Origin: a candidate division WOR-3 bacterium | GTDB taxonomy: Bacteria; Hydrothermota; Tepidihabitantia; Tepidihabitantales; JBDRVQ01 | Reading direction: 5' to 3' | Assembly: GCA_039801905.1 (NCBI GenBank) | Contig: JBDRVQ010000016.1 | Location: 1 to 38,915 of the forward strand | DNA: 38,915 nucleotides | Part shown: piece after piece, positions 499 to 38,915 of the stretch | How positions within the stretch are numbered: the stretch's first letter is position 1 | Layout of the letters: the number at the start of each line of letters is the position of its first letter | Notes under the pieces: model-generated | Database searches by the model: none | Told to the model about the DNA's origin: nothing | The model's input: the letters and a program-made list of their open reading frames with translations, nothing else | Made by a program: the position numbers and the translations under genes

Positions 499-502
499 TT
501 TT

Positions 503-531: not shown

Positions 532-549
532 TTTTCCACATAATTTGAA

Positions 550-765: not shown

Positions 766-997
766 CTTTTTATAAAGATAAAACCATCCTTTCTTACCCT
801 TCATCCTCTTTCCTTTGGATTTTCCCTTTTGGGATTAGTTATTTTGGAGGACCTCCGTGATTATCAATAAGACCCCCTTTATTAGACCTTTATTTTCTGC
901 TCGGTCGCTTTGGGAAATTGAAAGCCAAATCTTTGGTGGTATCTTTCCCAACCCCTCTCAAATCTCTTAATTGGGTCTTTCTTCTTTATCTTTATTC
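766..997. other. Intergenic region without a gene
   Basis: I see no convincing gene. The stretch starts with the CTTTTTATAAA flank of the 12-bp array, contains a short palindrome GGAGG-A-CCTCC (846-856) and one or two stray repeat units around 870-893 (TTAGACCTTTAT at 882-893). The rest is pyrimidine-rich without clear structure. Confidence 0.5.
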
Positions 998-1372: not shown

Positions 1373-1445
1373 ATTTGCCTCCATATAATATAACACCCAA
1401 AAAGGCAAAAACCTTAATAAAAACTTGCCCTCAAAATCTTAGGGG

Positions 1446-1473
1446 TTGACTTTTCCTAAGAATCAGTTATGAT
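1446..1473 (+). promoter_or_regulatory. Promoter giving a probably leaderless mRNA for the gene at 1479
   Basis: TTGACT (1446-1451), a 16-bp spacer and TATGAT (1468-1473) are followed after only 5 nt by the ATG at 1479. Transcription would begin at or next to the start codon, and no Shine-Dalgarno is present. Confidence 0.7.
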
Positions 1474-1478
1474 AAAAA

Positions 1479-2396: not shown

Positions 2397-5300
2397 AAAA
2401 GTAAGATTTTTCTTACTTCTCCTTTCCTTTTTCCCATTTCTCCTTCTGGGTATTGGCTGGCCCTTGCCACCAGGAGATTCGGTCTATCCCTTAGGAAATA
2501 ACTGGGGAAATTTTCAGGATTATGGCGGTGGGCCTTACTTCCATAACGGAATTGATGCCATAACTGTTGGGCAACACAACCGACCGGTGATTGCGGTTAG
2601 TAAAGGTTGGGTTAAAGCCTGGCTGACGATTGAAGCCGAGCTCCACTGGCGATTGGCAATCTGCGATTCCAATTTAAGTTTTACCGGAAGGGCGCCGGGT
2701 TGGCTCTATGCCCACATTGACCCGAATCGCTACCACAAGCAGGAAGGTGATTCAGTTCTCCCCGGGGATACGATTGGTTACCTTGTCTATTGGTCGGTAT
2801 CCGGTTTTGACCATATCCATTTTGCCCGGATCTCTGATACTGGTAGTCTCTGGCGCCGAGGAAGTTCCCAACCCCAAAATCCCACCTGGTGGTTCATCCA
2901 AAACCCTTTAACCATCATCCAACCTAATACCGACACTGTGAGACCGGTATTTGAAAATGCCCGAACCGGACAACTCTTTGCCTTTTGCCGGAATAATTCC
3001 TCCACCTATTTTAATGACCTAAATAATCTCAATGGGGATGTTGATATTATCGCCAAGATTTACGATAAGACTGGCTTTTCAACTGGAAACCCCACCTGGG
3101 ATAAATTAGCCCCTTACAAGATAAAATATTCTATTCGGGGGAGATATGCCCGAATTCCCGAAACCTTATCTTTAATCTTTAAGTACGGGCTTCCGCCCAG
3201 TGGCAGTAACGAAATAAGGGTTGTCTATAAAGACGATGCCACCTGTAACAGCCGGGGTGATTACAATAATCGGGATTATTATTTCATTGTGACAAATACC
3301 GATGGCGATTCTCTAATTGAGATGTCCGATACCACGGGTAAGTGGCGGACGCAAAACTTTCCGGATGATTACTATTGGGTAAAGGTAATCGCCGAAGATG
3401 TCTGTGGCAATTGGCGGGCGGAAAGTATCTTAGTAAAAACTAATAATAATAACCCGATAAGGGATGTTGGAGTCACTAAGATTCTGAGCCCAACCGGAAT
3501 GGTTGATTCGGGGACGGTTATCATCCCGGCCTGTTCTCTTTATAACTACGGGGGAGTGAATGAAAACTATCGGGTGCGGATGAAGATTGGCAACTTTTAT
3601 AATGATACTGCCCGGATCACCAACCATTCACCCGAAACCTACCGCTATTTAACCTTCCGCCCCTGGGAAGTAAAAGAAGTGGGCAACCATCCCGTCTCCT
3701 GCTCCACGGAATTGGCTAATGATATGGATTTAACAAACGACAAAAAATCCGATTCGGTCAAGGTGCAAAGACCGGTGATTAGGGATGTCGGCTGTCAAAA
3801 GATTTTAGCCCCAACCGGGACAATTGATTCGGGGAGTAGCGTTATCCCTGCCTGCTCGGTTTATAATTATGGTAACACCCAAGAAAGTTATTCGGTGCGG
3901 ATGAAGATTGGGGATTTCTATGATGAAGTCACTTCCGTCTCTAACCACCTACCCGGCACCTCCTACTACCTCACATTTCCACCCATCACCTTTAATTATC
4001 CAAGGGGAAGTTATTTCCTCTCTTGTTCCACTCAACTCTTTTCCGATACCAATCCCGCCAATGACAAGAAGGTTGACTCCTTAAAGATTATAGTTAAGGA
4101 TGTGGGAACAATCTCTCTTCTCCTGCCGAGTGTAATTGACTCCGGATGTTTTATCACCCCTGCCTGCTCGGTTTATAACTTTGGAGACCAGATGGCAAGT
4201 TATTGGGTTAGATTAAAAATTGGTAATTTTTATCTTGATACGGTCTGGGTGGCAAACCACCAACCAGGAATTCCCCTTTACTATACTTTTTCCATGTGCC
4301 AGATGAATGAGATTGGCACCCACCTGGCTTCTTGCTCCACGGAACTTACCGGTGATATGCACCCGGAGAATAATAAAAAGGCTTTCGCCATTAATGTCCA
4401 GAGGGGAGATTTTCCTGATGTCGGGGTGAAGGTGATTGTGGCACCCAAAGGGTTAATCAATTTGGGAGAAGAAGTTATTCCCGCCTGTACCGTTTTCAAT
4501 TATGGTAACACCCAAGAAAGTTATTCGGTGCGGATGAAGATTGGGGATTTCTATAACGAAGTCACTTCCGTCTCTAACCACCTACCCGGTACTTCCTACT
4601 ATCTAACCTTTCCTCTTTGGCTTGCTAACCAAAGCGGTGTTTATTTAGTCTCCTGCTCCACAGAACTTTTTAGCGATCGGCATCCGGAAAACGACCGAAA
4701 GTCTGATACCGCCTTGGTAATAAAACCAAGTATGCCCGCAGGCTGGATTAAAATTGGGGATGTGCCATTAGAACCGGATGGAAAGAAGATAAAAAGTGGT
4801 GGGGCGATAGTGGTGGTTAATGAGACCCTTTACCTCATAAAAGGGAACAACACCCGCAACCTCTATAAATACTTCTTTTATACGACCCCGCCTCCTGATC
4901 CATTCGCCCAGTTAACTGATTCCCTACCCCTTGGTCCTTCGGGAAAGAATGTGAAGAAAGGGAGCGCGATGACAACCGATGGCCGTTATCTCTATATCGC
5001 CAAAGGGGCCAACACGAAGGAGTTCTACCGTTATGATACAAAGAGAGAGGAGCCAATTTGGGAAACACTACCGCCAATAGAAGGGGAAAGAGGGCTTAAA
5101 GGGGGCACAGGTCTTGCCTATCTCAATGGATATATCTATCTTCTGAAAGGTTCTAATACGAAGGAGTTCTACCGATACCATATCCAAGAGAAGTTTTGGG
5201 AAAGGAGAAGGGATGCTTTGGGAATAAAGGGATACGGTGACGGTAGTTCTCTCGTCGCTTATGATGACACATCAATCTTTCTCCTCCAGGGTAAATATAA

Positions 5301-5895
5301 TAACTTCTATCGCTACCATCCGGAGAAGGACTCTTGGTACGAGAAGAGCCCCCTCCCTTTCTACCATCCGCAACTCAATCGGAAGAAAAAGGCAAAGGAA
5401 GGAGCAGCGCTTGCCGGATTTAGTGGTCTGGGCAGCATCTTTGCCTTTAAGGGCGGAAATACTAATGAGTTCTGGAAATACGAGCCAATTCGTGATACTT
5501 GGATTGGGCTTGAGACAATCCATTTGGGTCCGGAGAGGAAAAGGGTTAAAGGGGGTGGTAGCCTCTGTGCCAGTGGCTCAGAAAACTTTATAAAAATTGG
5601 TGCCCTAAAAGGTAATAATAGTACAAGCATCTGGGGATTTTTCATCCCCGACCCGGAAAGAATCGCTTCTCACCCAGGAGTAACTCCTGAGAAACCCTTG
5701 CCTCCTCAATCTCTCAACCTTTCCATCACTTCCTCCCCCGCTCCCCAATTTCCATCGGTTAAAATTTATAATGCTCTCGGCTTTTTAATCGGAGAGAGGA
5801 AGTCAAGAGGACTAAATCTTCCTAATGGTATTTACTTCTTAGAAGTAAAGATGGGGAATAGAATAAAAAGGCAAAAGATTATCTTTATAAAGTAA
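2386..5895 (+). CDS. Secreted M23-type peptidase with CARDB repeats, Kelch repeats and T9SS sorting domain
   Basis: The product has 1169 residues starting at a GTG inside the previous gene. The order is: signal peptide (about 1-24); LytM/M23 metallopeptidase domain with the zinc-ligand motifs HNGID (H53, D57) and HIHF (H143, H145); four tandem CARDB-like Ig domains (about 360-780), each starting DVG and containing PAC..YN(Y/F)G; five or six Kelch-like blades with the signature KG(N/G)NTxEFYRY (about 785-1095); and a C-terminal T9SS type A-like sorting domain with VKIYNALGFLIGE and LPNGIYFLEV ending in a basic tail. M23 enzymes cut peptidoglycan cross-links or Gly-rich peptides. The repeats and sorting domain imply export through the outer membrane and display or release at the cell surface. 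The combination of domains is unusual. fabH starts 1 nt after the stop. Confidence 0.85.
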   Translation: MVIRKVRFFLLLLSFFPFLLLGIGWPLPPGDSVYPLGNNWGNFQDYGGGPYFHNGIDAITVGQHNRPVIAVSKGWVKAWLTIEAELHWRLAICDSNLSFTGRAPGWLYAHIDPNRYHKQEGDSVLPGDTIGYLVYWSVSGFDHIHFARISDTGSLWRRGSSQPQNPTWWFIQNPLTIIQPNTDTVRPVFENARTGQLFAFCRNNSSTYFNDLNNLNGDVDIIAKIYDKTGFSTGNPTWDKLAPYKIKYSIRGRYARIPETLSLIFKYGLPPSGSNEIRVVYKDDATCNSRGDYNNRDYYFIVTNTDGDSLIEMSDTTGKWRTQNFPDDYYWVKVIAEDVCGNWRAESILVKTNNNNPIRDVGVTKILSPTGMVDSGTVIIPACSLYNYGGVNENYRVRMKIGNFYNDTARITNHSPETYRYLTFRPWEVKEVGNHPVSCSTELANDMDLTNDKKSDSVKVQRPVIRDVGCQKILAPTGTIDSGSSVIPACSVYNYGNTQESYSVRMKIGDFYDEVTSVSNHLPGTSYYLTFPPITFNYPRGSYFLSCSTQLFSDTNPANDKKVDSLKIIVKDVGTISLLLPSVIDSGCFITPACSVYNFGDQMASYWVRLKIGNFYLDTVWVANHQPGIPLYYTFSMCQMNEIGTHLASCSTELTGDMHPENNKKAFAINVQRGDFPDVGVKVIVAPKGLINLGEEVIPACTVFNYGNTQESYSVRMKIGDFYNEVTSVSNHLPGTSYYLTFPLWLANQSGVYLVSCSTELFSDRHPENDRKSDTALVIKPSMPAGWIKIGDVPLEPDGKKIKSGGAIVVVNETLYLIKGNNTRNLYKYFFYTTPPPDPFAQLTDSLPLGPSGKNVKKGSAMTTDGRYLYIAKGANTKEFYRYDTKREEPIWETLPPIEGERGLKGGTGLAYLNGYIYLLKGSNTKEFYRYHIQEKFWERRRDALGIKGYGDGSSLVAYDDTSIFLLQGKYNNFYRYHPEKDSWYEKSPLPFYHPQLNRKKKAKEGAALAGFSGLGSIFAFKGGNTNEFWKYEPIRDTWIGLETIHLGPERKRVKGGGSLCASGSENFIKIGALKGNNSTSIWGFFIPDPERIASHPGVTPEKPLPPQSLNLSITSSPAPQFPSVKIYNALGFLIGERKSRGLNLPNGIYFLEVKMGNRIKRQKIIFIK
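3865..3980 (+). repeat. Near-identical CARDB segment, copy 1
   Basis: About 116 bp inside the M23 gene, nearly identical at DNA level to 4498-4613 (only a few third-position and a few other changes), while the other CARDB repeats of the same gene have diverged. It encodes the core that begins YGNTQESYSVRMKIGDFY. Confidence 0.8.
4498..4613 (+). repeat. Near-identical CARDB segment, copy 2
   Basis: Partner of 3865-3980. It encodes the same stretch, with one clear amino-acid change (D to N after the FY pair). Conservation of silent sites points to recent duplication or gene conversion between the second and fourth CARDB units. Confidence 0.8.
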
Positions 5896-5896
5896 A

Positions 5897-6877
5897 ATGA
5901 AAAGGATAAAAATTATTGGCACCGGTTCCTACCTGCCGGAAAAGATTATTAATAATTTTGATTTAGAAAAGATGGTGGACACAAGCGACGAATGGATTAC
6001 GGAAAGGACCGGGATTAAAGAGAGGCACATCGCCCGGGAAGACCAAGCAACTTCGGATTTGGCTTACGAAGCGGCAAAGAGGGCACTAACGATGGCGGAT
6101 GTTAAGGCAAGTGACATAGATACGATAATCGTTGGCACGTCTACCCCGGATACTGTTTATCCTTCAACCGCCTGTTGGCTCCAAAAAGCATTGGGAGTTA
6201 AGGGAAGTGCTGCCTTTGATGTCAGCGCTGGTTGTTCCGGCTTCCTTTATGCCTTAGAGATTGCCTCGAATCTCATCGCGCAAAAAAGCGCCCAGAAAGT
6301 TTTGGTCGTGGGCGCCGAAGTGATGTCAAAAGTGGTCAATTGGGAAGACCGGGCAACCTGCGTTTTATTCGGCGACGGTGCCGGAGCCGCGGTTATTGTT
6401 CCCGCGGAAGGGAATTCCGGCATTCTTGCTTCTTATTGGGGGGCGGATGGTAATTTAGCCCCTTTACTCTATCAACCCGCTGGTGGCACAAGACTACCCG
6501 CTTCTGAGGAAACCGTGAGGAAAAGACTCCATTCGGTCCATATGGAAGGAAGGGAAGTCTTCAAGTACGCGGTCATCTGGATGGGGAAGGCAGCGCTTAA
6601 GGTTTTATCCGAAGCCAATTTGACGCCAGAAGAGATTGCCCTCTTTATACCCCATCAGGCAAATATGCGGATTATTGATGCCACCTTAGAAAAGGTGAAG
6701 ATACCAAAAGAAAAGACCTACTTAAATTTGCCCAGATGCGGCAATATGTCCGCCGCCACGATTCCGGTCGCCCTGGATGAGGCTTATCGGGAGGGAAGAA
6801 TTAAAGATGGTGACTATATCTTACTCTCCGCCTTTGGCACCGGTTTTACTTGGGCGGCGATGGTATTAAGGTGGTGA
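5897..6877 (+). CDS. fabH: Beta-ketoacyl-ACP synthase III
   Basis: The product has 326 residues, the normal FabH length. It condenses an acyl-CoA primer with malonyl-ACP to start fatty-acid synthesis in the cytoplasm. The thiolase-fold triad is complete: C113 in SAGCSGF, H253 in PHQAN and N283 in GNMSAAT. The N-terminal [10 protein letters not shown] and the [14 protein letters not shown] segment are typical. It starts 1 nt after the preceding stop with no Shine-Dalgarno; TATAAA (5886-5891) ends 5 nt before the ATG, so a leaderless internal start is possible, though no good -35 is visible. The porG gene follows 2 nt after its stop. This linkage suggests that its primer may be an acyl-CoA made by the oxidoreductase (inference). 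Confidence 0.95.
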
Positions 6878-6879
6878 AT

Positions 6880-7425
6880 ATGATTGAGATTAGATTCCAC
6901 GGTCGGGGAGGTCAAGGGGCGGTGGTCGCCTCCGAGATATTGGCGAGCGCCCTATTTCGGGAAGGAAAGTTTGTTCAGACATTTCCGGAATTCGGCGTGG
7001 AAAGGAGGGGAGCTCCCGTCCAAGCCTTCCTTCGCTTATCGGACAGTCCAATCAGGGTTCGCTATAAGGTTTATCACCCGGACCACATTGTCATCTTTGA
7101 TAAAGTCCTGATCAACCAGGTACCCATCTTTGAAGGTTTGAAAAAAGGGGGGTGGGTCTTAATCAACACCAACTCCTCTCCCCAAGAATATAAATTTCCG
7201 GATTATCACACTGCTACTTGCGATGCCACAGGAATTGCCATCAAGTATAAGTTAGGACCAAAAACCGCACCTATCGTCAATACCGCAATGTTGGGTGCCC
7301 TCTTACGCATTTTGCCTCTGGTGCAAATTGAAACCTTAGAAGAAAGTATCAAAGAATACATCAAGAAAAGAGCGGAAGATAATATCTTGGCGATGCGGGA
7401 GGCTTATAATGAGACAAAATTTTAA
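6880..7425 (+). CDS. porG: 2-oxoacid:ferredoxin oxidoreductase, gamma subunit
   Basis: The product has 181 residues from the ATG at 6880, chosen because AAGGTGGTGA lies directly upstream; an in-frame ATG at 6850 lies inside fabH. The N-terminal [19 protein letters not shown] is the hallmark of the gamma (PorG/VorG) domain, and the [16 protein letters not shown] segment is also typical. In the complex it helps bind the CoA substrate while the alpha/beta subunits oxidise a 2-oxoacid to acyl-CoA, CO2 and reduced ferredoxin. The next gene overlaps by 17 bp. Pyruvate is the commonest substrate, but a branched-chain 2-oxoacid (VOR) cannot be excluded from sequence alone. Confidence 0.9.
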
Positions 7426-9082
7426 AGAGATGAGAATTGAAGACTATCCGGTTTGTGCCATCTCCTTGGAGACAACCCTTCTCAATAAAACCGGCACCTG
7501 GCGCATCTTTCGGCCGGTATATGAGAATAAAATCCCACCCTGCCGGGATGCCTGCCCCGCGGGTGAAGATATCCAAAGATACATCTACCTCTGCCAAAAA
7601 GGAGAATACGAAGAAGGATACCGGACCATTCTGAAAAGTAACCCTTTCCCTGCCATCACCGGTCGGGTCTGCTTCCACCCCTGTGAAGATGCCTGTAACC
7701 GAAGGGAATACGACGAGCCAATCGCCATTCATCACATTGAGAGATTTCTGGGTGATTACGGGTTGGAAAAGATAGAAAAGAAAGATTCTACTCGGCGAAA
7801 GGGGAGAACGGAAGTGGGACAAAAAGCGGCGGTAATCGGTTCGGGTCCCAGCAGCCTTGCCTTCGCTTATTACCTCTCCCGGGAAGGTTTTAGTGTCACA
7901 ATCTTTGAGAAAGAAAGCCTACCCGGTGGTTTATTAAGAACCGGTATCCCCGCCTACCGCCTGCCCAAAGATGTGTTAGACAAAGAGATTAAAAAATTGG
8001 AAAGATGGGGAGTGAAATTTATTACGAATACCTCTTTCCCGAAAGAGGTTTCCCTTTCTGATCTGAGAAAAAATTACGCCATCATCTTTTTTGGCATTGG
8101 CGCCCAGAAGGAGCGAAGGTTGGATATCCCCAATGAGGATTCAGAAGGTGTCTTAGAAGGGATCTCCTTTTTAAGGATGATAAACTTAGGGAAAAAGCCA
8201 AGGATTGGGAAAAGGGTCTTAATAATTGGTGGTGGCAACACGGCGGTTGATTGCGCCCGAGCTGCCAAGAGGTTGGGAAAGGATGTCACTATCCTCTACC
8301 GCCGGACCAAAGAAGAGATGCCGGCTTCCCCAGAAGAAATCCAGCAAGCCGAAGAAGAAGGGGTAAAGATTCATTATTTAGTCGCTCCGGTAAGGGTCTT
8401 AACCACTAGGGATAAGAAAGTAAAGGGTTTAGAATGTATACGGATGAAACTGGGCTCTCCTGATAGTTCGGGCCGGAGAAGGCCAATTCCGATTAAAGGC
8501 TCCAACTTCTCAATCCCCGGGGAAACCGTCATTAAAGCGATCGGCGAGATAGTAGAGATGGAAATCCTTCCCAAAGAACTGGAGAAGACCCCTTGGGGGA
8601 TAAAGACCGACCAATTTGGGAAAACCAACCTTCAAGGCATCTTTGCCGGGGGGGATTGCGTGACCGGCCCGCAGACTGTGGTTAAAGCAATCGCTTGGGG
8701 GCGAAGAGCCGCAGAAACGATTCTGGGGAAGAAAACAGAAGAAATAAGAAAGGAGATTGTCAATTTTAACCTTTTGAATACTTTCTATTTTGAGAAAATG
8801 GCGAGGGTTAAGATGCGCTCCCTCCCCTTAAAAAAGAGGAAGACCTTCCAGGAGATAAATCTTGGCTATAACGAGGAGGAACTTTTAAGGGAAACCGGAA
8901 GATGCTTTTCTTGTGGAGTCTGTAACCAATGTGACAACTGTTATGTCTTCTGTCCGGATTTAGCGGTAAGGAAGAAGGAAGACGGTTACGAGTTTGACTA
9001 TGACTATTGTAAGGGGTGTGGTGTCTGTGCCCGGGAATGTCCCCGGTGTGCGATAACTATGTATCCGGAGGCGGAAATATGA
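7409..9082 (+). CDS. NAD(P)H-type flavoprotein (GltD-like) fused to PorD ferredoxin subunit
   Basis: The product has 557 residues. The N-terminal part (about 45-115) is the Cys-rich Fe-S domain of the glutamate-synthase small-subunit family (CRDACPAGEDI, GRVCFHPCEDACNR). Next come an FAD Rossmann motif (VIGSGPSSLAFAYYL, about 145), an NAD(P)-binding motif (LIIGGGNTAVDCARAA) with the following YRRTKEEMPA, and the GIFAGGDC motif. The C-terminal 60 residues carry two 4Fe-4S clusters of the PorD type (CFSCGVCNQCDNCYVFCP and CKGCGVCARECPRC). The fusion places a flavin and pyridine-nucleotide site in the oxidoreductase complex, so electrons may pass between ferredoxin and NAD(P)H. Start chosen for GGAGG at 7398-7402. 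porA overlaps by 4 bp. Confidence 0.9.
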   Translation: MRQNFKEMRIEDYPVCAISLETTLLNKTGTWRIFRPVYENKIPPCRDACPAGEDIQRYIYLCQKGEYEEGYRTILKSNPFPAITGRVCFHPCEDACNRREYDEPIAIHHIERFLGDYGLEKIEKKDSTRRKGRTEVGQKAAVIGSGPSSLAFAYYLSREGFSVTIFEKESLPGGLLRTGIPAYRLPKDVLDKEIKKLERWGVKFITNTSFPKEVSLSDLRKNYAIIFFGIGAQKERRLDIPNEDSEGVLEGISFLRMINLGKKPRIGKRVLIIGGGNTAVDCARAAKRLGKDVTILYRRTKEEMPASPEEIQQAEEEGVKIHYLVAPVRVLTTRDKKVKGLECIRMKLGSPDSSGRRRPIPIKGSNFSIPGETVIKAIGEIVEMEILPKELEKTPWGIKTDQFGKTNLQGIFAGGDCVTGPQTVVKAIAWGRRAAETILGKKTEEIRKEIVNFNLLNTFYFEKMARVKMRSLPLKKRKTFQEINLGYNEEELLRETGRCFSCGVCNQCDNCYVFCPDLAVRKKEDGYEFDYDYCKGCGVCARECPRCAITMYPEAEI

Positions 9083-11170: not shown

Positions 11171-13903
11171 TTATCGGGAGATGAGGAAAACTTTCTTCAC
11201 TTTTCGGTTTTTTCCCTTTCCCACCTCAACCAGATAGACCCCAGCCGGTAAATTTTTAAGCGCTTCCTCCTTCTCCGCCACCAATCTTCCCAAAGGATTA
11301 TAGACCTTCACTTCCAGAAAGGGAACTCCTATCTCGGAGAGGATTGGTTGGGAAGTTCCTCCGAATTCTTCGCTTGAAAAGTTTTTTGCCAAAAATTCAT
11401 CTCCGGTGCCTCCGGAATAGCGCCAGAGACCAGTGGTATTATTTCCTTTCAGAGCAAAGATATAACCATTTTGGTAAACTAAGAAACCGCCACCCTTAAC
11501 CCCTTTATTTTCGCTTCCCGAAGGTAAAAATGGAGCAGGACTCCAATTATTGGCACCAATATCATATACCCAAAACTCATTACTATTCCCACCCTTAAAG
11601 GCATAGAGTTTATTGTTCGCAAAAACGATTGCTCCCCCTTCCTTCACATATCTTTTCCTACCAACCGTTGGATGAGTAAAAGGTAGAATTGAAGAGAAAC
11701 CACTAACCCAGGCATCACTGGTAATGTCGTATTTATGTAACTCGTTATACTTTGCCCGCAGACAATAGATTGTTTGATTACCATCAAAGGTAATCGCACT
11801 CCCAATCTGATAACCTTTATCCGGAGAACTGTAAGCCGGTGCTGATTGCTTCACTTCCCAAGTATTATCCATCACATCGTAGAGATAAAAATCCTTCGTC
11901 TTTGAACCCTTTAGTAGATAAATACATCCCCGGCCATTCTTCTCACAGTAGACCATTCCGGTGCCGCCTTTTAATGCCACCCCAGGGATTTGGCTTAATG
12001 ATGTTAAACTTAAAGGATTTGTCTTTGGTGCCCGATAGAAAAGACTTTTATTACCACCCGGAACAATATAGATATAATCGCCACCTGCTAAGATAAAACC
12101 ACCTTTCTTTATCTTTAAATCCTCGCCCCCGTAACGAAGATTACCAATAAAGGCGATGCCATTAGTTAGGGGATTAAAACGATAAAGGCTCGGCTTATTA
12201 TTTCCTTTCAGAACGAAAATCGTTGTATCATCAATCACCGCTAAACCGCCACCGCTCTTCACCGCCTTACCATCCGGACTGAATGGCACATCCGCTACTT
12301 TCTCCCAACCAGTGATTGGCGAATAAATTTCCAGATTCTTTGCCAACTCATCGTTTCCGGAATTTTCATCCCCGCTTAAGGCGGTGTGAGCACTAATCGC
12401 ATAAAAGCCAATTATAGGAATTGAGACCTGAGGAAAGGAAATCTCCTGCCACCCATCCGGTGGTAAGTTATTAACCGAAGCCGTCTCCTTATAGATTGTC
12501 TCCGCTGGTGGTCGGACAATAATAAACCAGACCGGAAAAGAAGCGCTATTCAACCCGTAATTTTCCACCCTAATTTTAGGAGAAAATAGACTATCCTTCT
12601 TTACCCGGTTGGGTGGCGAGAGAATCTCTGCCACTCCGACATCCCAATTATAAACCACAGTCCGAAGACTGCACTTATAAGTAAAGGTTAAATTATTGGC
12701 TGAACCCTGCCATTGCGTAACAGTAACGGCGAGAGCGATATGGGAATGACCAGAAAAAGAGACCGTCTTTATACCGCGATTCCAAGGATACGGCAAAACG
12801 AAGCCATAAGTATCCGAAGGAGGGGTTTTATAACCAATCGCGTATCCTGACCAGAGATAATTATCTTCGCCATCAAAAACCATTCTCAGATAGTTTGTGC
12901 CGCCAGCCGAAAATTGAATGTAATTCGTCCCACCCGGACCCGAAGGATAACGATTGCCTTGATCACCTGTAGCCGGATAAGAATTATGATTCCGAAGCAC
13001 CGAAGATGGCGGCCAGAGGTTAGATTCGGAAAAATAATGAGTGGGATCGGCCCGCGTACCGGTGAAATAACGCCAGAGTCCGTATTCCTTTAAGGCATTA
13101 GTTAAGTTGCTGGCAAAATTGCCAAGGGCATCATTTATACCGGAAAGGGTATTCTCTCCGGAAACTTGTCCCATCCTTTCCCAGGCTCTCCTTGGGCAAC
13201 TTATTGCGTAGCACTCCGCAAGAAACATCGGCCAGAGACAACCCGCATATTCATAAAGGTCTTCATCACAGGTTATCGGCTTGTGCGGAGAATCTAAGGG
13301 GTCTATTGACCAAGAGAGATAATCCATATACTGATTTTCATTATCATAGCAGACATCTTCCATCCAGGTGGCGCAATTCTCCTGCCACCAGTCATCTTCT
13401 AAATAACTATAACGAAGTTGGGAAGCGTGATTAAACTCATGGGAAGAGACAACCCTTAAATCACGGAAAGAGAGCCCCGGAGCAATTTCCATATAACTTG
13501 TGGCACCGTCAGGATAGGGATTGGTATAGAGATACTCTCCCACTGTCCTTCCCATCACATAGAGACCGAGGTCTCGGATATAGACATCATACCGGTCATC
13601 CGGACCTGCCCCATCCGGTGGTGGAGATGCCCAACCTAAGGTATCAATCTGTTTTGCCCAAGAATACTCCATATACTTAGAAAGCGATTCCGCATAAGCC
13701 CGAGTGGTCGCATTCGTTCCGATGGTATCAAAATGGATAATGAAATGGGTAGAATAGACATATTTCGGCCCATCCGGGGGCCTTGGGATCTTTTCTCCCA
13801 TCCTAAAAACCCTTAAAGCCTCTTGCGTACCGCACCATTCCTTCTTCTCCGCCCATAAAAAAGCAATAAAAATTAAGAATAAAAAGATTGTTATCTTCTT
13901 CAT
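11171..13903 (-). CDS. Secreted HExxH metalloprotease (MXAN_6640-like) with CARDB, Kelch and T9SS sorting domain
   Basis: The product has 910 residues. Order: signal peptide (1-18); zincin domain with YDVYIRDLG, the active-site motif HEFNH (H155, E156, H159) and the downstream ENCATWMED (E175/E182) that could supply the third ligand; one CARDB-like domain starting DVGVAEILSP (about 425-530); Kelch-like blades starting GWEKVADVPFSPDG with KGNN and KGGNSNEFWVYD signatures (about 530-820); and a C-terminal sorting domain with VKVYNPLGRLVAE, LPAGVYLVEV and a basic tail. The catalytic region resembles the secreted MXAN_6640 family. The CARDB-Kelch-sorting portion is closely similar to that of the M23 protein at 2386, so the two enzymes share one carrier. 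It has its own consensus promoter and an AAGGAG Shine-Dalgarno. Confidence 0.85.
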   Translation of the reverse strand: MKKITIFLFLIFIAFLWAEKKEWCGTQEALRVFRMGEKIPRPPDGPKYVYSTHFIIHFDTIGTNATTRAYAESLSKYMEYSWAKQIDTLGWASPPPDGAGPDDRYDVYIRDLGLYVMGRTVGEYLYTNPYPDGATSYMEIAPGLSFRDLRVVSSHEFNHASQLRYSYLEDDWWQENCATWMEDVCYDNENQYMDYLSWSIDPLDSPHKPITCDEDLYEYAGCLWPMFLAECYAISCPRRAWERMGQVSGENTLSGINDALGNFASNLTNALKEYGLWRYFTGTRADPTHYFSESNLWPPSSVLRNHNSYPATGDQGNRYPSGPGGTNYIQFSAGGTNYLRMVFDGEDNYLWSGYAIGYKTPPSDTYGFVLPYPWNRGIKTVSFSGHSHIALAVTVTQWQGSANNLTFTYKCSLRTVVYNWDVGVAEILSPPNRVKKDSLFSPKIRVENYGLNSASFPVWFIIVRPPAETIYKETASVNNLPPDGWQEISFPQVSIPIIGFYAISAHTALSGDENSGNDELAKNLEIYSPITGWEKVADVPFSPDGKAVKSGGGLAVIDDTTIFVLKGNNKPSLYRFNPLTNGIAFIGNLRYGGEDLKIKKGGFILAGGDYIYIVPGGNKSLFYRAPKTNPLSLTSLSQIPGVALKGGTGMVYCEKNGRGCIYLLKGSKTKDFYLYDVMDNTWEVKQSAPAYSSPDKGYQIGSAITFDGNQTIYCLRAKYNELHKYDITSDAWVSGFSSILPFTHPTVGRKRYVKEGGAIVFANNKLYAFKGGNSNEFWVYDIGANNWSPAPFLPSGSENKGVKGGGFLVYQNGYIFALKGNNTTGLWRYSGGTGDEFLAKNFSSEEFGGTSQPILSEIGVPFLEVKVYNPLGRLVAEKEEALKNLPAGVYLVEVGKGKNRKVKKVFLISR

Positions 13904-13925: not shown

Positions 13926-13953
13926 ATTATAAGAATAATTTCTCTTTTGTCAA
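13926..13953 (-). promoter_or_regulatory. Consensus promoter for the HExxH metalloprotease
   Basis: TTGACA (13948-13953), a 16-bp spacer and TATAAT (13926-13931) match the sigma-70 consensus at all 12 positions. A leader of about 15-20 nt with AAGGAG follows, so unlike several other genes here this mRNA is not leaderless. Confidence 0.85.
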
Positions 13954-29447: not shown

Positions 29448-30727
29448 GAGAATAAATTAAATCCTTCTTTAATGATTGTCTCTTCCCTTCTCTCTCCAAT
29501 TGAGATGCCAATCACTTCGGTCTCGGTTCTTTCAGCGATAAAGTTAAGATAATCTATCGCCGGTTTTGGTAAATCAGAAAACTTTTTTGCTTTTTTGATA
29601 CTCTCCTGCCAACCTTTCAGTTTCACATATTTTGGTTTTAGTTCCCAAACCCTTTCCGGGTCAAAATCTTCTACCTCTCCGTCATTGGTCAAATAACCAT
29701 CCGCCACCAGAATCTCCGGCATCTCATCTAAGACATCAAGTTTGGTGATGAAGAGTTTATCAAAGCCATTAACCCTTTTGGCATAGCGGATGATTCCCAA
29801 ATCAAGCCAACCGATCCGCCTCGGCCTGCCGGTTGTCGCTCCGAACTCCTTTCCCACTTCCCGCAATCTCTCTCCCAACTCTTCCTTAATCTCTGTTGGG
29901 AAAGGTCCTTCCCCAACCCGAGTGGTATAAGCCTTAGCCACACCAATCACATCCTTAATCGCCTTCGGACTAATCCCCAGTCCAGAAGGGATTGCCCCTA
30001 CCGTGGTGAAAGAGGAGGTGACATAGGGATAAGTTCCATAATTTAGGTCCAAAAGGGTTCCCTGGGCTCCCTCAAAAAGAACCCTCTCCCCTCTCTTTAG
30101 GGAAGAGGAGATAATCTCTGAGGTATCGGCAATTAAGGGCAAGAGGTTAGGGAGTTCACTCTCTACCTCTTCAATGATTTCTCTCTCGTTTAAGGGTTCG
30201 CCGTCATAAACGGTCATCAGATAGAAGTTCTTAAAGGCGATATTCTTTTTTAACCGGCTTTCAAATTCGCCCCAGTCTTTTAATTCACCGAGGCGAATCC
30301 CAATGCGGGCTGATTTATCCTCATAAGCCGGCCCAATACCCCGACCGGTGGTACCAATCTTCGCCCTCTTCTTTTCCCGAATTTGGTCAATCGCCTTGTG
30401 GTAAGGAAAGATGAGATGGACCCGATAATCAATAAAAAGCCTATCTTTTATTTCAACCCCCAAGTTTCTTAAAGAATTTATCTCTTCTCCCAGAACTCCA
30501 ATGTCCAAGACACAGCCGCTACCGATAACCCCTTTCGTTTTTGGGTTTAAGAGCCCACAAGGGATCTGATGGAAGACAACCGGCTGATTTTGATAAAGGA
30601 CCGTATGACCGGCATTCGGTCCGCCATTAAAACGGGCAACTATCTCCGCCTCCCGGGCAAAGAAATCAATAACCTTTCCTTTCCCTTCATCTCCCCACTG
30701 ACAACCAATGACCGCAATTCCGGGCAT
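29444..30727 (-). CDS. purA: Adenylosuccinate synthetase
   Basis: The product has 427 residues, full length. It joins IMP and aspartate using GTP, the first committed step to AMP. The motifs are complete: QWGDEGKGKV, FNGGPNAGHT, IGTTGRGIGPAYEDK, LFEGAQGTLLDLNYGTYP, TRVGEGPFPTE and GATTGRPRRIGWLD. It overlaps the preceding PorV-like gene as TAATG, so it is translated from that operon. Its stop TAA overlaps the TAG of the activase gene on the other strand (shared TTAG), leaving no room for a terminator. Confidence 0.97.
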   Translation of the reverse strand: MPGIAVIGCQWGDEGKGKVIDFFAREAEIVARFNGGPNAGHTVLYQNQPVVFHQIPCGLLNPKTKGVIGSGCVLDIGVLGEEINSLRNLGVEIKDRLFIDYRVHLIFPYHKAIDQIREKKRAKIGTTGRGIGPAYEDKSARIGIRLGELKDWGEFESRLKKNIAFKNFYLMTVYDGEPLNEREIIEEVESELPNLLPLIADTSEIISSSLKRGERVLFEGAQGTLLDLNYGTYPYVTSSFTTVGAIPSGLGISPKAIKDVIGVAKAYTTRVGEGPFPTEIKEELGERLREVGKEFGATTGRPRRIGWLDLGIIRYAKRVNGFDKLFITKLDVLDEMPEILVADGYLTNDGEVEDFDPERVWELKPKYVKLKGWQESIKKAKKFSDLPKPAIDYLNFIAERTETEVIGISIGERREETIIKEGFNLFS

Positions 30728-31806
30728 TACATCTTGTAAGAAAGGGAAATCTTCCAGTTGGAAGTGGGAAAGGAATAAATCATATAGTCAAAGCCCAAAT
30801 CAATGGAAAAGTTCTTTACCCCCAAACCGAAGCCATAGCAGAGACCAAGTCTTTTCACACTGGATTTTGGGCCAAAGAGCCAGGAAATGATTGATTTTAC
30901 TTCACTCTCTTCCTCTCCCCCCTTTGCGGTTTCCACCCCTCCGCGCCAGCCATGGACATCTTCAAAATAACCGATCCGGGCATGAACTATCTTAGCAAAA
31001 GAGATCTCAATCCCTAAACTCTTCCAGGCATCCTCAAACTCATAACCTAAGGAGTCCCACTTAAATGTTGTGAGACCGATGTCCATCTCAATCGGGATAT
31101 TTAATTTCACATTCTCTTTCTCTATGGGGATAAAATTTACTCCGAGACGGAGCATCCTCGGGATGGGGTCGGATTCCCCAGAAGCGGTATAAGAAATATT
31201 AGGACCGAGATTGGCAACACTTGCCCCACAATTGAGCCAACGGAGCGGTTTATAGAGAAGACCAAAATCAAATCCCCAAGTGATCCCTGTGCCACCAGAG
31301 GTTATCCCTAACTCGGGCATTGCTGCCCAGACCCACTCCGGAACCAAAAAGGAATAGATAAATTTCCAGGAAAGACCAGCGCCGAGTTGGGGAAGAAATC
31401 GGTAGCCATAAGATAAAGTAAAGGCTAAATCAAAGGTCGTATATTCTCCCAAATATTCACCCCGACTGTTTATCACCTCGGTCTTACCGGTATTAAGATA
31501 GATGATATTGCCACCGATTGTTCCTTTGGGTAAGGAGTGGGTAACAGCCAAGAACTCATAATACATACCCGGATATAAGCCAGGTAGCCAATTGCAATGC
31601 ATCAGGGTGGCATTCAAGGAGTTCTGGAAGGATTGACCTGCTGGATTGTAATAGGTCGCTGAGGCATCATCGGAGATCGCAACAAAGGCACCGCCTAAAG
31701 AGGTAGGACGGGCGGCGGGCCAAATCATCAAAAATACCGCTCCCGGATACTCAAAGGCACCAAAGCAAGCGGTAAAAAATAAGGTTATGGTTAGGAGTCT
31801 CTTCAT
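30727..31806 (-). CDS. PorV/PorQ-family outer-membrane protein
   Basis: The product has 359 residues. It has a signal peptide (MKRLLTITLFFTACFG), then the hallmark of the UPF0164/PorV/PorQ group, ARPTSLGGAFVAISDDASATYYNPAGQ, followed by alternating aromatic beta strands to a barrel end (WKISLSYKM). PorV is the outer-membrane shuttle that takes T9SS cargo from the translocon to the attachment complex, and five T9SS-type cargo genes are in this window; whether this copy serves them or is one of the many uncharacterised paralogues is unknown. It has its own promoter at 31829-31856, with a short leader lacking a Shine-Dalgarno. purA overlaps its stop. Confidence 0.83.
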   Translation of the reverse strand: MKRLLTITLFFTACFGAFEYPGAVFLMIWPAARPTSLGGAFVAISDDASATYYNPAGQSFQNSLNATLMHCNWLPGLYPGMYYEFLAVTHSLPKGTIGGNIIYLNTGKTEVINSRGEYLGEYTTFDLAFTLSYGYRFLPQLGAGLSWKFIYSFLVPEWVWAAMPELGITSGGTGITWGFDFGLLYKPLRWLNCGASVANLGPNISYTASGESDPIPRMLRLGVNFIPIEKENVKLNIPIEMDIGLTTFKWDSLGYEFEDAWKSLGIEISFAKIVHARIGYFEDVHGWRGGVETAKGGEEESEVKSIISWLFGPKSSVKRLGLCYGFGLGVKNFSIDLGFDYMIYSFPTSNWKISLSYKM

Positions 31807-31828: not shown

Positions 31829-31856
31829 ATTATAAAAGATTTTCCCCCTATGTCAA
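31829..31856 (-). promoter_or_regulatory. Promoter of the PorV-like/purA unit
   Basis: TTGACA (31851-31856), a 16-bp spacer and TATAAT (31829-31834), full consensus. The -35 overlaps the stop codon of the DUF5683 gene. The ATG is 22 nt further on, with no Shine-Dalgarno. Confidence 0.8.
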
Positions 31857-35358: not shown

Positions 35359-35386
35359 AGTATACTAAAAAAAAATTATCGGTCAA
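35359..35386 (-). promoter_or_regulatory. Promoter giving a probably leaderless mRNA for valS
   Basis: TTGACC (35381-35386), a 16-bp spacer and TATACT (35359-35364); the ATG at 35352 follows after 6 nt. Confidence 0.7.
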
Positions 35387-35421: not shown

Positions 35422-36720
35422 TTAAAATCCGAGTAAAGAGCGAAGTTTTAATAAAAGGATGTGGAAAAGGTAAGCGATTGGGATTAATAAAATAAGCCTT
35501 AATTCCCAAGAAAGGTTGGCTTCAAATACATCAAGAAGCGCCCAAGAGGAGAGGATCCCAATCAAAAGATTGGTATACCGGTCCCATTGGCTATCCCGCA
35601 ATTCCGTTATCTTATGAAGTGAATCTAAGGTGGAATCTACAGATTCCTTCGTTAGCCAATAGAAATGTAAATGGGTGTTTAGTTGCTCTTTGGTAAATCT
35701 CACATCTTCTAACCAAATTTTTGCCAAGGCTTCTTCATTATCTTTCAACTCCTTTTTCCTCAGGAGTTTTTCCAGCCCTTCTTGAATAATTTCTATCTCC
35801 TTTATGTATCCTTTCAAGGTTATGAGGTTTTGAATATATTCTGAGCGAAGAGCACTTATTTCAATTGTCCTTGCTTCCGTCTTTTTTAAGATTTTCACAT
35901 CAGTTTCCCCTTTTGGTCCTTTTACCCTGATCAATTCTCCTATACCCAAATCTCTTATCCTCTTCTCTTGGTCATTGAGGTCTTTTCTTAGAAAAAGGCA
36001 GGAGTTGATAGCATAATAAAACTTGTATCGGTTTAGAAAGAGAAAAGGGAAAATTTTATGGATAAGTTCAGCAATAAGCCATATATTTTTATCCTCTTCC
36101 CAGTAAAGGACTACTGGTTTTTCCTTCCTTTCTAAGTTTATTGCCAGATAGCCCCAAGGGAATGAAAACAAGTTAATCTCATCTTCGGGATAGTGAAGAG
36201 ATTCCATAATTTCTGAGGCAATTGTCTTTGCCACTTCTTCTTCGCACTTTTCAATTTCTGCCACTGGGTAATAGGTTTCGCCAATGTAAGCATGCTGACC
36301 ACTGGATGTATTTTGTAATCCCGCGGTGTCTAAAATCTCTTTTTCCAGCAAAGAAAAAATCTGAGGGGAATGTTCACCTTCCAAACAATAACCGATTTGC
36401 ATTCGGAGAGCGTCATCATAAGCCCGAGTCCATAATTCCAATTTCTGATTAGGATTTACCACTTGCCAACCGGTGCTCAATATTCGGACATCCATAAATA
36501 AATCTTCTCTTCCCTCCTGGCCAAAGATAATTTTTTTAGTTCTTTCTAAAAACTCTTCAACTTCTTCTTGGGGAAATGGTTCGTTCGGTTTTACTTTTTT
36601 CCAGCCGGCGGAAAGAAATTCTCTGATTGCTTTCTTATGCCATTCAAATTCACTTTCTTTCTCTAATCCGTGCCAGCGAAAAAGAAAAATGGATTGATAA
36701 ATTGTTGGGTCCTTAACCAT
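35422..36720 (-). CDS. Unknown protein with coiled coil and two C-terminal membrane helices, CHAT-cluster gene
   Basis: Not recognised with certainty. The product has 432 residues: a mixed alpha/beta N-terminal part (about 1-290) with IYQSIFLFRWHGLEKESEF, WHKKAIREFLSAGW, FMDVRILSTGW and KPVVLYWEEDKNIWLIAELI; a helical, probably coiled-coil part (about 300-385); and two membrane helices at the end (YTNLLIGILSSWALLDVF and LRLILLIPIAYLFHILLLKL). The large soluble part probably faces the cytoplasm, anchored by a hairpin. It ends a four-gene unit with a TPR-CHAT protein. The overall plan recalls the large partner of described CATRA (caspase and TPR-repeat-associated) conflict systems, but I claim no sequence match. 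It has no Shine-Dalgarno; TATAAT (36728-36733) lies 7 nt before the ATG without a good -35. Confidence 0.65.
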   Translation of the reverse strand: MVKDPTIYQSIFLFRWHGLEKESEFEWHKKAIREFLSAGWKKVKPNEPFPQEEVEEFLERTKKIIFGQEGREDLFMDVRILSTGWQVVNPNQKLELWTRAYDDALRMQIGYCLEGEHSPQIFSLLEKEILDTAGLQNTSSGQHAYIGETYYPVAEIEKCEEEVAKTIASEIMESLHYPEDEINLFSFPWGYLAINLERKEKPVVLYWEEDKNIWLIAELIHKIFPFLFLNRYKFYYAINSCLFLRKDLNDQEKRIRDLGIGELIRVKGPKGETDVKILKKTEARTIEISALRSEYIQNLITLKGYIKEIEIIQEGLEKLLRKKELKDNEEALAKIWLEDVRFTKEQLNTHLHFYWLTKESVDSTLDSLHKITELRDSQWDRYTNLLIGILSSWALLDVFEANLSWELRLILLIPIAYLFHILLLKLRSLLGF

Positions 36721-36728
36721 AAGATATA

Positions 36729-37100
36729 TTATAAAGTTTCTGCTCTTTTAATAATTTCCTTTATCCGCTCCACCAAATTTCTTTCAAATTCCTTAGGCGA
36801 TAAAACCTGTCCTGTGGGGAGGCCAGGGGTTTCTTCCTTTCGCCCGACCATTTCCTCAGATGGTATCCCTCGGGTAGGAACCTTTGTTTCCACTCCCAAA
36901 ATTAGGCCTGTAGTGAAAGGGTGTCTTTGAAAAAGGGAAATAACTTCTTCCGTCCATTTGCGAAGGGATTCTTTCTCTGGGATTAAATTCTGAGAGGACT
37001 TTTTCAGACCTTCTCGGAAATCATTCCAGGAATCACCGAGATTTTTTTTAATCTCCCCTAACCTTTCTTCTAATAAACTAACGAGTGTTATTGCCTCCAT
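36729..37100 (-). CDS. Small charged helical protein, CHAT-cluster gene
   Basis: Not recognised. The product has 123 residues. The first 60 residues are helical and charged (SLLEERLGEIKKNLGDSWND, REGLKKSSQNLIPEKES), followed by RHPFTTGLILGVETKVPTRG and a Pro/Gly-rich linker (RKEETPGLPTGQ), and a final charged helix (FERNLVERIKEIIKRAETL). No signal peptide, membrane helix or Cys is present. GGAGG lies 5 nt before the ATG. It sits 13 bp after the zf-TFIIB gene and 8 bp before the membrane protein gene, so it is probably a cytoplasmic adaptor or inhibitor of the cluster (inference). Confidence 0.6.
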   Translation of the reverse strand: MEAITLVSLLEERLGEIKKNLGDSWNDFREGLKKSSQNLIPEKESLRKWTEEVISLFQRHPFTTGLILGVETKVPTRGIPSEEMVGRKEETPGLPTGQVLSPKEFERNLVERIKEIIKRAETL

Positions 37101-37113
37101 TTTTCCCTCCTTA

Positions 37114-37566
37114 TTATTTCTGCCAATAATTCCACAACTTCATAAAAATTCCTTTTTTTATTTCGCCCTCTTTTATCTTCGGCAAATACGGTTCCACATA
37201 TTGATAAGCCTTTTTTAATTCTCCGTCATCAAGCCATACCCCACATCCCTTCGGACAACCATCAATAAGAAAAGTCTTATTCTTTTCCGCACAATACCAA
37301 TAGTTAGAAAGTCTATTGCCACAACGGGGACATTGATAACTTCCTTCCTTTCCCCTCTCAACTCCTACACTTCCTTCCCAACTCTTTTTCAATTCCTCCG
37401 GTAGATTATCGTATCCCCTTTTAAGGATTTCTAAAAGTTCTTGCCCCTTAAAATCAAACCAGACACCTTCGCAATTGGGGCATTGGTCAACTATTACCGT
37501 CTTAACTTTAATCTCCTTCAAAGGGAATTTCTTTCCACATTTGGGACAACCTAACATTCCTTTCAT
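37114..37566 (-). CDS. Double zf-TFIIB zinc-ribbon protein, CHAT-cluster gene
   Basis: The product has 150 residues with two zf-TFIIB-type zinc ribbons. The first is CPKCGKKFPLKEI...DQCPNCEGVWFDFKGQELLEI (about 7-46), the second CPRCGNRL...LIDGCPKGCGVWLDDGELKKA (about 79-117); both keep the four Cys and the (V/I)W(F/L)D turn. Such ribbons bind zinc and occur in small proteins of unclear role that may bind nucleic acid or protein. The second ribbon has an extra residue inside its CPxC knuckle (CPKGC). A consensus promoter overlaps the end of the CHAT gene and places the ATG 6 nt after the -10, so this gene and the two below it can be expressed apart from the CHAT gene. Confidence 0.85.
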   Translation of the reverse strand: MKGMLGCPKCGKKFPLKEIKVKTVIVDQCPNCEGVWFDFKGQELLEILKRGYDNLPEELKKSWEGSVGVERGKEGSYQCPRCGNRLSNYWYCAEKNKTFLIDGCPKGCGVWLDDGELKKAYQYVEPYLPKIKEGEIKKGIFMKLWNYWQK

Positions 37567-37572
37567 ACTTTA

Positions 37573-37600
37573 ATTATATTCAATTTTTCCTTAATGTCAA
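37573..37600 (-). promoter_or_regulatory. Consensus promoter giving a probably leaderless mRNA for the zf-TFIIB gene
   Basis: TTGACA (37595-37600), a 16-bp spacer and TATAAT (37573-37578), all 12 positions consensus. The -35 overlaps the CHAT stop codon and the ATG at 37566 follows after 6 nt, with no Shine-Dalgarno. Confidence 0.85.
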
Positions 37601-38915
37601 TCGGCGCCGAAGCATTGAAATCCTGCCCAGTGATAGGGATGGGAAAAGGGCTTATCCTCAGAAAATTGAGAAAGGGAACCGGTTAATAACCCTAAAAGGT
37701 ATCCTGACTTTCCCTTTGCCCAATCTAATAATTCTTCCTTTGTCGCTTCCTTTAACCATAACTGGGCTTCCCTTAATGCCCCTCCCTTACCCATATTCTT
37801 ATTAAATATATTGTCATAGGTTCTTATCATTATTAAGGCAGTTGAAATATCAGAAACTGTCCAAAGACTACCAATCACCGTTGGTGCACCGGCATAAAGA
37901 AATCCTGTATGTAAACCGATACTCTCATCGGCAATATCCCGAAAATCAATTAAACCAGTCTCACAAGCAGAAAGGGAAACAAGCCAACTATTGGGAATTT
38001 TTCCTTTGTCAAAAATTTCATAAAGTTCTAAACATTCATTATTCCCTAATAGCAAACGGGAACTTAAATCCGAGCCTAAAGAATATTCCCCATAGGTTGA
38101 AAGATGGATTATATTAAATTGACTTATCCTTTCCAATAAATAACTCTTATCAACTACTTCTCTAATGTGGGTCTCTTTCATCGCAAATCCCTTTTCGATC
38201 TCTTGCACCTCTACTTCTGAAAATAGAAGGGGAAAAGGAGAAGGCGGATTGGCAATGGCAAAGAGACTATCCCTACTTTTTCTCTCTTCTTCCCTTCTAT
38301 AACATAAGTCCAAAAGGGTGCAGTTTGGGGCATAGGTTATCTCATACTCATCAATAAGATATCTCCCATCTTCTTTTTGACAGGCATGAATTGGTAAGAT
38401 ACTTAACCCTTTATTGGGAATGATTACAATCTTTTCACCTTTCTCAAACCTTTTCTCTTCAAAGACCTTTGCCAATAAGTCCTCATATAAGGGTTTTAAG
38501 TTATTAAACCAATTTTTCTGCTCCTCCACCACTACTTTTTCTGTCTCTTCCTTTCCCTTTTCCAAAACGAGTCTCCTAAAATTACCAACTATATTTTTAT
38601 AATTAAAATAACGATAGACCCAACCATCAATTGGCTTATTTCCATCAAACTTCACCAAAATCTCCCTTAACCTCTTATCATTAAATCCTGGAACATTTAT
38701 AAATTCAAAACCATTCTTTGGTTTTATAATAAATACATAAGTCTCTTTATTAGTGACCCGGAATAAAACAATTGTCCTTCCAATCCTATTTGCCAAATCC
38801 TTAATTCTTTCAAAGTTTAGTGGTTTTTTAATCTCTTCCTCTTTTTCTCTCTCTATTCCCTTATAAATAATAAAGTCTAAAATTGTCCTCCCTTTCCCCC
38901 TTTCCGAATATTCCA
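37597..38915 (-). CDS. TPR-CHAT caspase-like protein with Tyr in place of the catalytic His, 5' end outside window
   Basis: At least 438 residues are visible and the frame is open to the right edge, so the start is outside; the TTG at 38796 is an internal codon. The first visible residues (EYSERGKGRTILDFIIYKGI) resemble the last TPR-like helix that precedes CHAT domains. The CHAT domain follows: KIVIIPNKGLSILPIHAC, YEITYAPNCTLLDLC, NIIHLSTYGEYSL, WLVSLSACETGL, GFLYAGAPTVIGSLWTVSD and the C-terminal HPYHWAGFQCFG. CHAT proteins are caspase-fold Cys proteases with a His in the first core motif (xxxHG) and Cys in SACET. Here the Cys is present (codon 37963-37965), but the His position reads Tyr (TYG, codon 38092-38094). 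It may be a weak or inactive protease, a regulator, or use another His. Confidence 0.88.
   Translation of the reverse strand, partial: EYSERGKGRTILDFIIYKGIEREKEEEIKKPLNFERIKDLANRIGRTIVLFRVTNKETYVFIIKPKNGFEFINVPGFNDKRLREILVKFDGNKPIDGWVYRYFNYKNIVGNFRRLVLEKGKEETEKVVVEEQKNWFNNLKPLYEDLLAKVFEEKRFEKGEKIVIIPNKGLSILPIHACQKEDGRYLIDEYEITYAPNCTLLDLCYRREEERKSRDSLFAIANPPSPFPLLFSEVEVQEIEKGFAMKETHIREVVDKSYLLERISQFNIIHLSTYGEYSLGSDLSSRLLLGNNECLELYEIFDKGKIPNSWLVSLSACETGLIDFRDIADESIGLHTGFLYAGAPTVIGSLWTVSDISTALIMIRTYDNIFNKNMGKGGALREAQLWLKEATKEELLDWAKGKSGYLLGLLTGSLSQFSEDKPFSHPYHWAGFQCFGAD

What the first reader, a model, noticed from the sequence alone, without database searches (positions are those of the whole stretch)
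35422..38915. Candidate membrane-linked CHAT-protease conflict or signalling system
Four consecutive minus-strand genes, separated by 8-30 bp, encode a TPR-CHAT caspase-like protein, a double zf-TFIIB protein, a small charged helical protein and a 432-residue protein with a large soluble part, coiled coil and C-terminal two-helix membrane hairpin. CHAT proteases paired with uncharacterised partners are known from conflict systems (for example CATRA-type systems and the TPR-CHAT partner of type III-E CRISPR). The zf-TFIIB gene as a partner and the small charged protein are, to my knowledge, not described in that setting. No family match is claimed for the 432- and 123-residue proteins.
Basis: partly seen in the sequence, partly recalled or inferred. 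Interest (0 to 1): 0.75.

Follow-up and report, generated by a model that had tools for sequence, protein, structure and literature searches.

The report
CHAT gene beside caspase-linked membrane module
At the end of a contig from an uncultured WOR-3 bacterium, a probably inactive caspase-like gene sits beside a small protein and a membrane protein whose relatives are found next to caspase-type genes, which suggests a cell-death or defence module that resembles, but does not match, the known CATRA systems.

Summary
The four genes are real, with the reported coordinates and gaps (30, 13, 8 bp). They share low GC3 (0.33-0.37; 22 neighbours 0.41-0.53), so they look like one acquired block. Three corrections. 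(1) The CHAT gene runs off the contig, so its TPR part is not in the window, and the catalytic His is Tyr274 (His in all 15 other CHAT proteins aligned); as sequenced it is probably not an active protease. (2) A perfect sigma-70 promoter (TTGACA-16-TATAAT) lies between CHAT and the zinc-ribbon gene, so one operon is not supported. (3) Relatives of the zinc-ribbon gene were not found beside CHAT genes.

The last two genes are a conserved pair. The 432-aa protein has relatives in two more genomes of the phylum, each preceded by a small gene and by a short gene homologous to the start of a WD40-caspase. A probable distant relative follows a TPR-CHAT gene and a small gene. The large protein may be CorA-like without the GMN motif (weak evidence). 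Pfam CATRA-N, CATRA-C and CATASP do not match. Best reading: a divergent caspase/CHAT-linked membrane module that works like CATRA systems, with the protease lost or inactive here.

The parts
37597..38913 (-). CHAT-domain gene, 5' end off the contig (438 codons present)
   Evidence: PF12770 E=1e-46 over residues 141-436; only CHAT gene in the genome; 48% identical to G007 TPR-CHAT
38092..38094 (-). Codon TAT = Tyr274, at the position of the catalytic His of CHAT proteases
   Evidence: alignment with 15 other CHAT proteins of the phylum, all His here; aligned to the His of the CHGE motif of Csx29, whose catalytic residues are H615/C658 (PMC10028731)
37963..37965 (-). Codon TGT = Cys317, catalytic Cys position, retained (SACETG)
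37573..37600 (-). Perfect sigma-70-type promoter TTGACA-16-TATAAT; -10 ends 6 bases before the zinc-ribbon ATG
   Evidence: one of three 12/12 matches in the window, each just upstream of a gene
37114..37566 (-). Double TFIIB-type zinc-ribbon protein, 150 aa
   Evidence: PF13453 E=4.7e-18; relatives in 28 other genomes at E<=0.001, in unrelated neighbourhoods where read
36729..37100 (-). Small charged protein, 123 aa; positional counterpart of the 107-114 aa genes in G080 and G077
   Evidence: same place directly upstream of the large gene; AGGAGG ribosome-binding site; sequence similarity to the counterparts is not significant
35422..36720 (-). Large protein, 432 aa: soluble part, long helices, C-terminal two-helix membrane hairpin; possibly CorA-like without GMN
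   Evidence: relatives G077 (E=2.5e-6; BLASTP 7e-7) and G080 (BLASTP 5e-6); CorA-like evidence
35449..35568 (-). Membrane hairpin (helices at residues 385-403 and 406-424)
   Evidence: hydropathy
35359..35386 (-). Promoter-like site of the next gene (valS), 10/12 match, -10 ends 6 bases before its ATG: downstream boundary of the group

Best explanation
A foreign block that carries a caspase/CHAT-linked membrane module. The core is the small + large gene pair: the large protein is membrane-anchored and probably a CorA-like two-helix protein, and the small helical protein is its partner or gatekeeper. In related loci the pair follows a repeat protein fused to a caspase-superfamily protease (TPR-CHAT) or the remains of one (WD40-caspase). 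Inferred mechanism: the repeat part senses an invader or damage; the protease, directly or through the small protein, releases or opens the membrane protein; the membrane is permeabilised or depolarised and the cell dies or stops growing. In this genome the CHAT probably lacks protease activity (Tyr for His), so the module is either regulated without proteolysis or decaying. The zinc-ribbon gene is probably a passenger or local regulator that shares the pair's promoter. Shown: conservation of the pair, linkage to caspase-superfamily genes, Tyr in place of His, the promoter sequence, the compositional block. Inferred: all function, complex formation, pore formation, defence role.
For: Large-protein relatives in G077 and G080, each with a small gene directly upstream that overlaps it by 4 bases. 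Upstream of both lies a short gene; the G080 one is 62% identical over 47 residues to the start of the 954-aa WD40-caspase of G078. G116: TPR-CHAT, then a 148-aa gene, then a 473-aa gene with a C-terminal hairpin that outscores 1000 shuffled decoys against the 3-member profile, E=0.001. G078: CHAT, 136-aa and 511-aa two-helix protein in a tight operon, and a relative of that large protein in G080. Shared low GC3 of the four window genes. CorA-like: Pfam CorA E=0.012 in the G080 member; the first 16 PDB fold matches of the G077 model are all CorA or MRS2, best E=0.009, probability 0.97; collinear C-terminal motifs IE(E/Q)NR and PEL(S/K)W against E. coli CorA. CorA-family membrane proteins are established effectors in type III CRISPR defence (PMC10600005).
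Against: No other locus has the same four genes. The two clear relatives of the large gene lack a CHAT neighbour, and their caspase-derived gene is only 67-80 codons long. A promoter separates CHAT from the pair, so co-regulation is not shown. The CHAT here lacks its catalytic His. CorA similarity is weak: models have mean pLDDT 41-48; the window protein's own model does not rank CorA on top; hhalign of the 4-sequence alignment with E. coli CorA is not significant; a 3-member profile does not rank CorA above its shuffles, and 15 of 500 shuffles reach the pairwise G080 score. The neighbours whose families were looked up are housekeeping or secreted-type genes, not a defence island. No PADLOC match for the pair.
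Confidence: 0.45

Rival explanations
1. It is a divergent true CATRA system: CHAT/caspase + CATASP small protein + CATRA-N/CATRA-C large protein.
For: Same component list, order and sizes as I recall for CATRA (caspase/TPR protein, about 100-aa small protein, about 450-aa partner); PMC8195603 calls CATRA a caspase-dependent ternary conflict system.
Against: Pfam CATRA-N (PF20269) and CATRA-C (PF20270) give no match over cut-off in any of 147 genomes of the phylum, and CATASP (PF20271) none in four key genomes; none falls on the small or large genes. No NCBIfam match. I could not obtain a genuine CATRA sequence for a profile or fold comparison.
Confidence: 0.25
2. Chance neighbourhood: a truncated CHAT gene at a contig end next to an unrelated transcription unit (zinc ribbon, small, large).
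For: Perfect promoter between CHAT and the zinc ribbon; zinc-ribbon relatives not CHAT-linked; the G007 CHAT stands alone.
Against: The pair is linked to caspase-superfamily genes in G077, G080 and probably G116; the four genes share an unusual GC3.
Confidence: 0.2
3. A decaying locus: once a working CHAT or caspase system, now losing its protease (Tyr for His here, protease body missing in G077 and G080). It can be true together with the best explanation.
For: Tyr274 at the catalytic His position; short WD40-caspase-derived gene upstream of the pair in two genomes, with its tail in another frame after a T run in G077.
Against: The rest of the CHAT frame is intact and codes well; the pair and the short WD40 gene are conserved between two genera (69% identity of the short gene; 54% of the large protein).
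Confidence: 0.25
4. A type III-E (Craspase) component: the CHAT is a Csx29.
For: Best NCBIfam hit is Csx29, E=4.5e-17; the PDB sequence matches are CHAT chains of the Craspase type.
Against: 62 bits against a required 300; none of the three neighbours matches a Cas protein. This is general CHAT similarity.
Confidence: 0.01

Closest known systems
CATRA ternary conflict systems (CATRA-N PF20269, CATRA-C PF20270, CATASP PF20271)
   Same: Caspase-superfamily protease, small protein and about 450-aa partner in a row (sizes and order from my own knowledge)
   Different: No match to any of the three Pfam models; zinc-ribbon gene added; CHAT active site incomplete
CorA-family effectors of type III CRISPR (SAM-AMP system, PMC10600005)
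   Same: Large soluble N-terminal part plus a C-terminal membrane domain of CorA type, next to a defence-type sensor
   Different: No CRISPR genes in the group; no GxN motif; sequence similarity to CorA is weak
Type III-E Craspase (Csx29 TPR-CHAT; PMC10028731)
   Same: CHAT fold, catalytic Cys position kept
   Different: No Cas proteins in the group; Csx29 has catalytic His615, here Tyr
WD40-caspase proteins (G078, L190 1111-3975)
   Same: The start of this protein is homologous to the short gene upstream of the pair in G077 and G080
   Different: The window has CHAT, not a WD40-caspase

Membership tests
CATRA system | Large protein matches CATRA-N (PF20269) | tested here: not met
   no match over cut-off in 147 genomes, none at the large gene; none
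CATRA system | Large protein matches CATRA-C (PF20270) | tested here: not met
CATRA system | Small protein matches CATASP (PF20271) | tested here: not met
CATRA system | Caspase-superfamily protease with repeat domain in the same operon | tested here: inconclusive
   CHAT adjacent but separated by a promoter; TPR part off the contig; Tyr in place of His
CATRA system | Same fold as known CATRA proteins | not testable with these tools
   no genuine CATRA sequence reached and models of low confidence
CHAT domain protease | CHAT domain profile | tested here: met
   PF12770 160 bits, cut-off 24
CHAT domain protease | Catalytic His-Cys dyad | tested here: not met
   Cys317 kept, His replaced by Tyr274; sequence error not excluded
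CorA superfamily | Two C-terminal transmembrane helices with a short tail, after long helices | tested here: met
   first helix marginal in the window protein
CorA superfamily | GxN motif at the end of the first membrane helix | tested here: not met
   absent in window, G077, G080, G116, G078; present in E. coli CorA
CorA superfamily | Profile or fold match | tested here: inconclusive
   PF01544 E=0.012, below cut-off; Foldseek E=0.009 on a low-confidence model; hhalign negative
Type III-E Craspase | Csx29 profile over cut-off | tested here: not met
   62 of 300 bits

The most novel reading that the evidence does not exclude
A CorA-like, GMN-less membrane effector with a small gatekeeper, switched by caspase-superfamily proteins whose protease activity is dispensable: the CHAT here acts as a pseudo-protease sensor or scaffold, and in two relatives only one WD40 blade of the caspase protein remains. 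That would be a membrane-effector module distinct from CATRA that works without proteolysis.
Probability: 0.12. Interest if true: 0.75.

Novelty: new variant of a known kind. Interest (0 to 1): 0.5.

Why it matters
Bacterial caspase-like proteases are being found to control cell death and immunity, but few of their membrane partners are known. A conserved small + membrane pair that travels with CHAT and WD40-caspase genes, and may use a CorA-type membrane domain, gives a concrete candidate for the executioner, which can be tested directly by co-expression.

Tried and rejected
Direct family searches of the 432- and 123-aa proteins: nothing. Relatives in plasmids, viral contigs and named genomes with the single protein: none; with the 3-row alignment only the two contigs already known, which gave names. 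Weak hits of the large protein in other genomes (L004-L011): only L005 was read; it is an enzyme of the pyruvate/indolepyruvate oxidoreductase type by my reading. Type III-E membership: rejected on score. CATRA by profile: not met. A real CATRA protein from CHAT-bearing actinobacterial, cyanobacterial and chloroflexotal plasmids: none found (where no control rang, so absence is not shown). Homology of the G078 large protein to the window family: no support. Homology of the small proteins of the window and G077/G080 by sequence: not significant; position only. Structure models: low confidence, so the fold search is only a lead; the viral library gave nothing.
Full report
What is there. The window is one whole contig (G000:C16, 38,915 bases) of a 1.70 Mb, 58-contig genome. 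Its phylum is that of WOR-3 / Candidatus Hydrothermota, by the record titles of two genomes of the same phylum. At the right end lie four minus-strand genes: CHAT (37597-38913, open at the contig end), zinc ribbon (37114-37566), small (36729-37100) and large (35422-36720), followed 69 bases on by a valyl-tRNA synthetase gene, by my reading of the sequence. All four code in frame. Their GC3 is 0.326, 0.364, 0.371 and 0.372, while 22 other genes of the contig range from 0.41 to 0.53: the four look like one block of foreign origin.

The CHAT gene. PF12770 matches at E=1e-46. It is the only CHAT gene found in the genome. The closest relative, a stand-alone TPR-CHAT of 874 aa in G007 (same order), is 48% identical over the part present. 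Any TPRs would lie beyond the contig end here. In an alignment with 15 other CHAT proteins of the phylum the catalytic Cys is kept (Cys317), but the catalytic His is Tyr274 (codon TAT), with His in all 15 others. The same position aligns with the His of Csx29; mutating the Csx29 pair H615/C658 abolishes cleavage (PMC10028731). One base separates TAT from CAT, so an assembly error or a polymorphism cannot be excluded.

Transcription. In the 30-base gap between CHAT and the zinc ribbon lies a perfect TTGACA-16-TATAAT (its first bases overlap the CHAT stop), whose -10 ends 6 bases before the ATG, so the message would be nearly leaderless. The window has only three 12/12 matches, all just upstream of genes on the correct strand, and several other genes, valS among them, have good matches at the same short distance. 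This is a sequence prediction, not a mapped start, but it argues that zinc ribbon-small-large can form their own unit.

The pair. A single-protein search of 147 genomes found one clear relative of the large protein, in G077 (E=2.5e-6; BLASTP 7e-7). A two-row profile found a second, in G080 (54% identical to G077; BLASTP to the window protein 5e-6). Both have a small gene (114 and 107 aa) directly upstream, overlapping by 4 bases. The two small proteins resemble each other (41%), but similarity to the window's is not significant, so that link rests on position. Upstream of both small genes is a short gene that starts like a WD40-caspase: one WD40 blade, 69% identical between the two genomes, and 62% identical over 47 residues to the start of a 954-aa WD40-caspase in G078. 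The residues PNKLQDFPFFEI near its end are shared by both genomes (in G077 in another frame after a T run) and resemble the last strand of caspase domains, by my reading. So the pair lies next to what looks like the remains of a caspase-superfamily gene in two genomes and next to CHAT in the window.

More distant loci. G116 has TPR-CHAT, a 148-aa gene and a 473-aa gene with a C-terminal hairpin; the last scores above 1000 shuffled decoys with the 3-member profile (E=0.001), modest support for homology. G078 has CHAT, a 136-aa and a 511-aa two-helix protein with a 3-base gap and a 4-base overlap, but no detectable sequence similarity to the window family. CHAT genes occur in 38 of 147 genomes; among the loci fetched these two are the only other CHAT-small-large layouts I saw.

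The zinc ribbon. Relatives occur in 28 other genomes at E<=0.001. In the eight best loci read, no CHAT or pair gene was found nearby (for G018 and G026 my ORF filter did not display the zinc-ribbon gene itself, but the neighbours carry no match). It is thus a widespread small protein family, linked to the group only here.

What the large protein may be. It has long helices and two membrane helices that end 8-12 residues from the C-terminus in the three members, as in CorA. Pfam CorA hits the G080 member at E=0.012, below cut-off. The G077 model, although of low confidence (pLDDT 48), matches CorA and MRS2 structures in its first 16 PDB hits (best E=0.009). The G080 C-terminus aligns collinearly with E. 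coli CorA: IEENR with IEQNR before the first membrane helix, PELSW with PELKW in the loop, and the GMN motif falling in a gap; 15 of 500 shuffles score as high. Against: the window protein's own model (pLDDT 41) does not favour CorA, hhalign is negative, and a 3-member profile does not rank CorA above its shuffles. I rate a CorA-like domain as somewhat likely (about 0.55) but not shown. GxN is absent in all members, so it is not a Mg channel of the usual kind.

Comparison. CATRA systems are caspase-dependent ternary conflict systems (PMC8195603); their component sizes and order, as I recall them, fit. The three Pfam models do not match. I therefore do not file it as CATRA; that it works like CATRA stays open. 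CorA-family membrane proteins are type III CRISPR effectors needed for immunity (PMC10600005), which makes a CorA-like executioner plausible.

Verdict. A real, probably acquired, caspase/CHAT-linked membrane module, seen in few genomes, with an apparently inactive CHAT in this one.

Noticed in passing
window 31829-31856 and 13926-13953, minus strand: Two further perfect TTGACA-16-TATAAT promoters, upstream of the genes at 30727-31806 and 11171-13903; several other genes have 10-11/12 matches with the -10 ending 4-9 bases before the start codon, which suggests common leaderless transcripts.
   Followed up: partly
L012 (G077:C115) 2041-2241 and L098 (G080:C95) 2798-3040, minus strand: Short gene made of one WD40 blade plus a conserved tail, apparently a WD40-caspase without its middle; in G077 the tail is in another frame after a run of T.
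   Followed up: partly
L190 (G078:C2) 1-8512 and L191 (G078:C76): Clusters of WD40-caspase and stand-alone caspase-like genes with large secreted-looking proteins in one genome.
   Followed up: no
G046 and G034: Ten and seven CHAT matches in single genomes of the phylum; those surveyed have no small + membrane pair next to them.
   Followed up: no
window 2386-5895 and 11171-13903: Two large proteins with Kelch-motif matches on the same contig.
   Followed up: no
L096 (Herpetosiphon aurantiacus plasmid pHAU01) 2733-6299: A large CHAT-like protein followed by a 116-aa gene, with no large membrane gene listed right after it.
   Followed up: no
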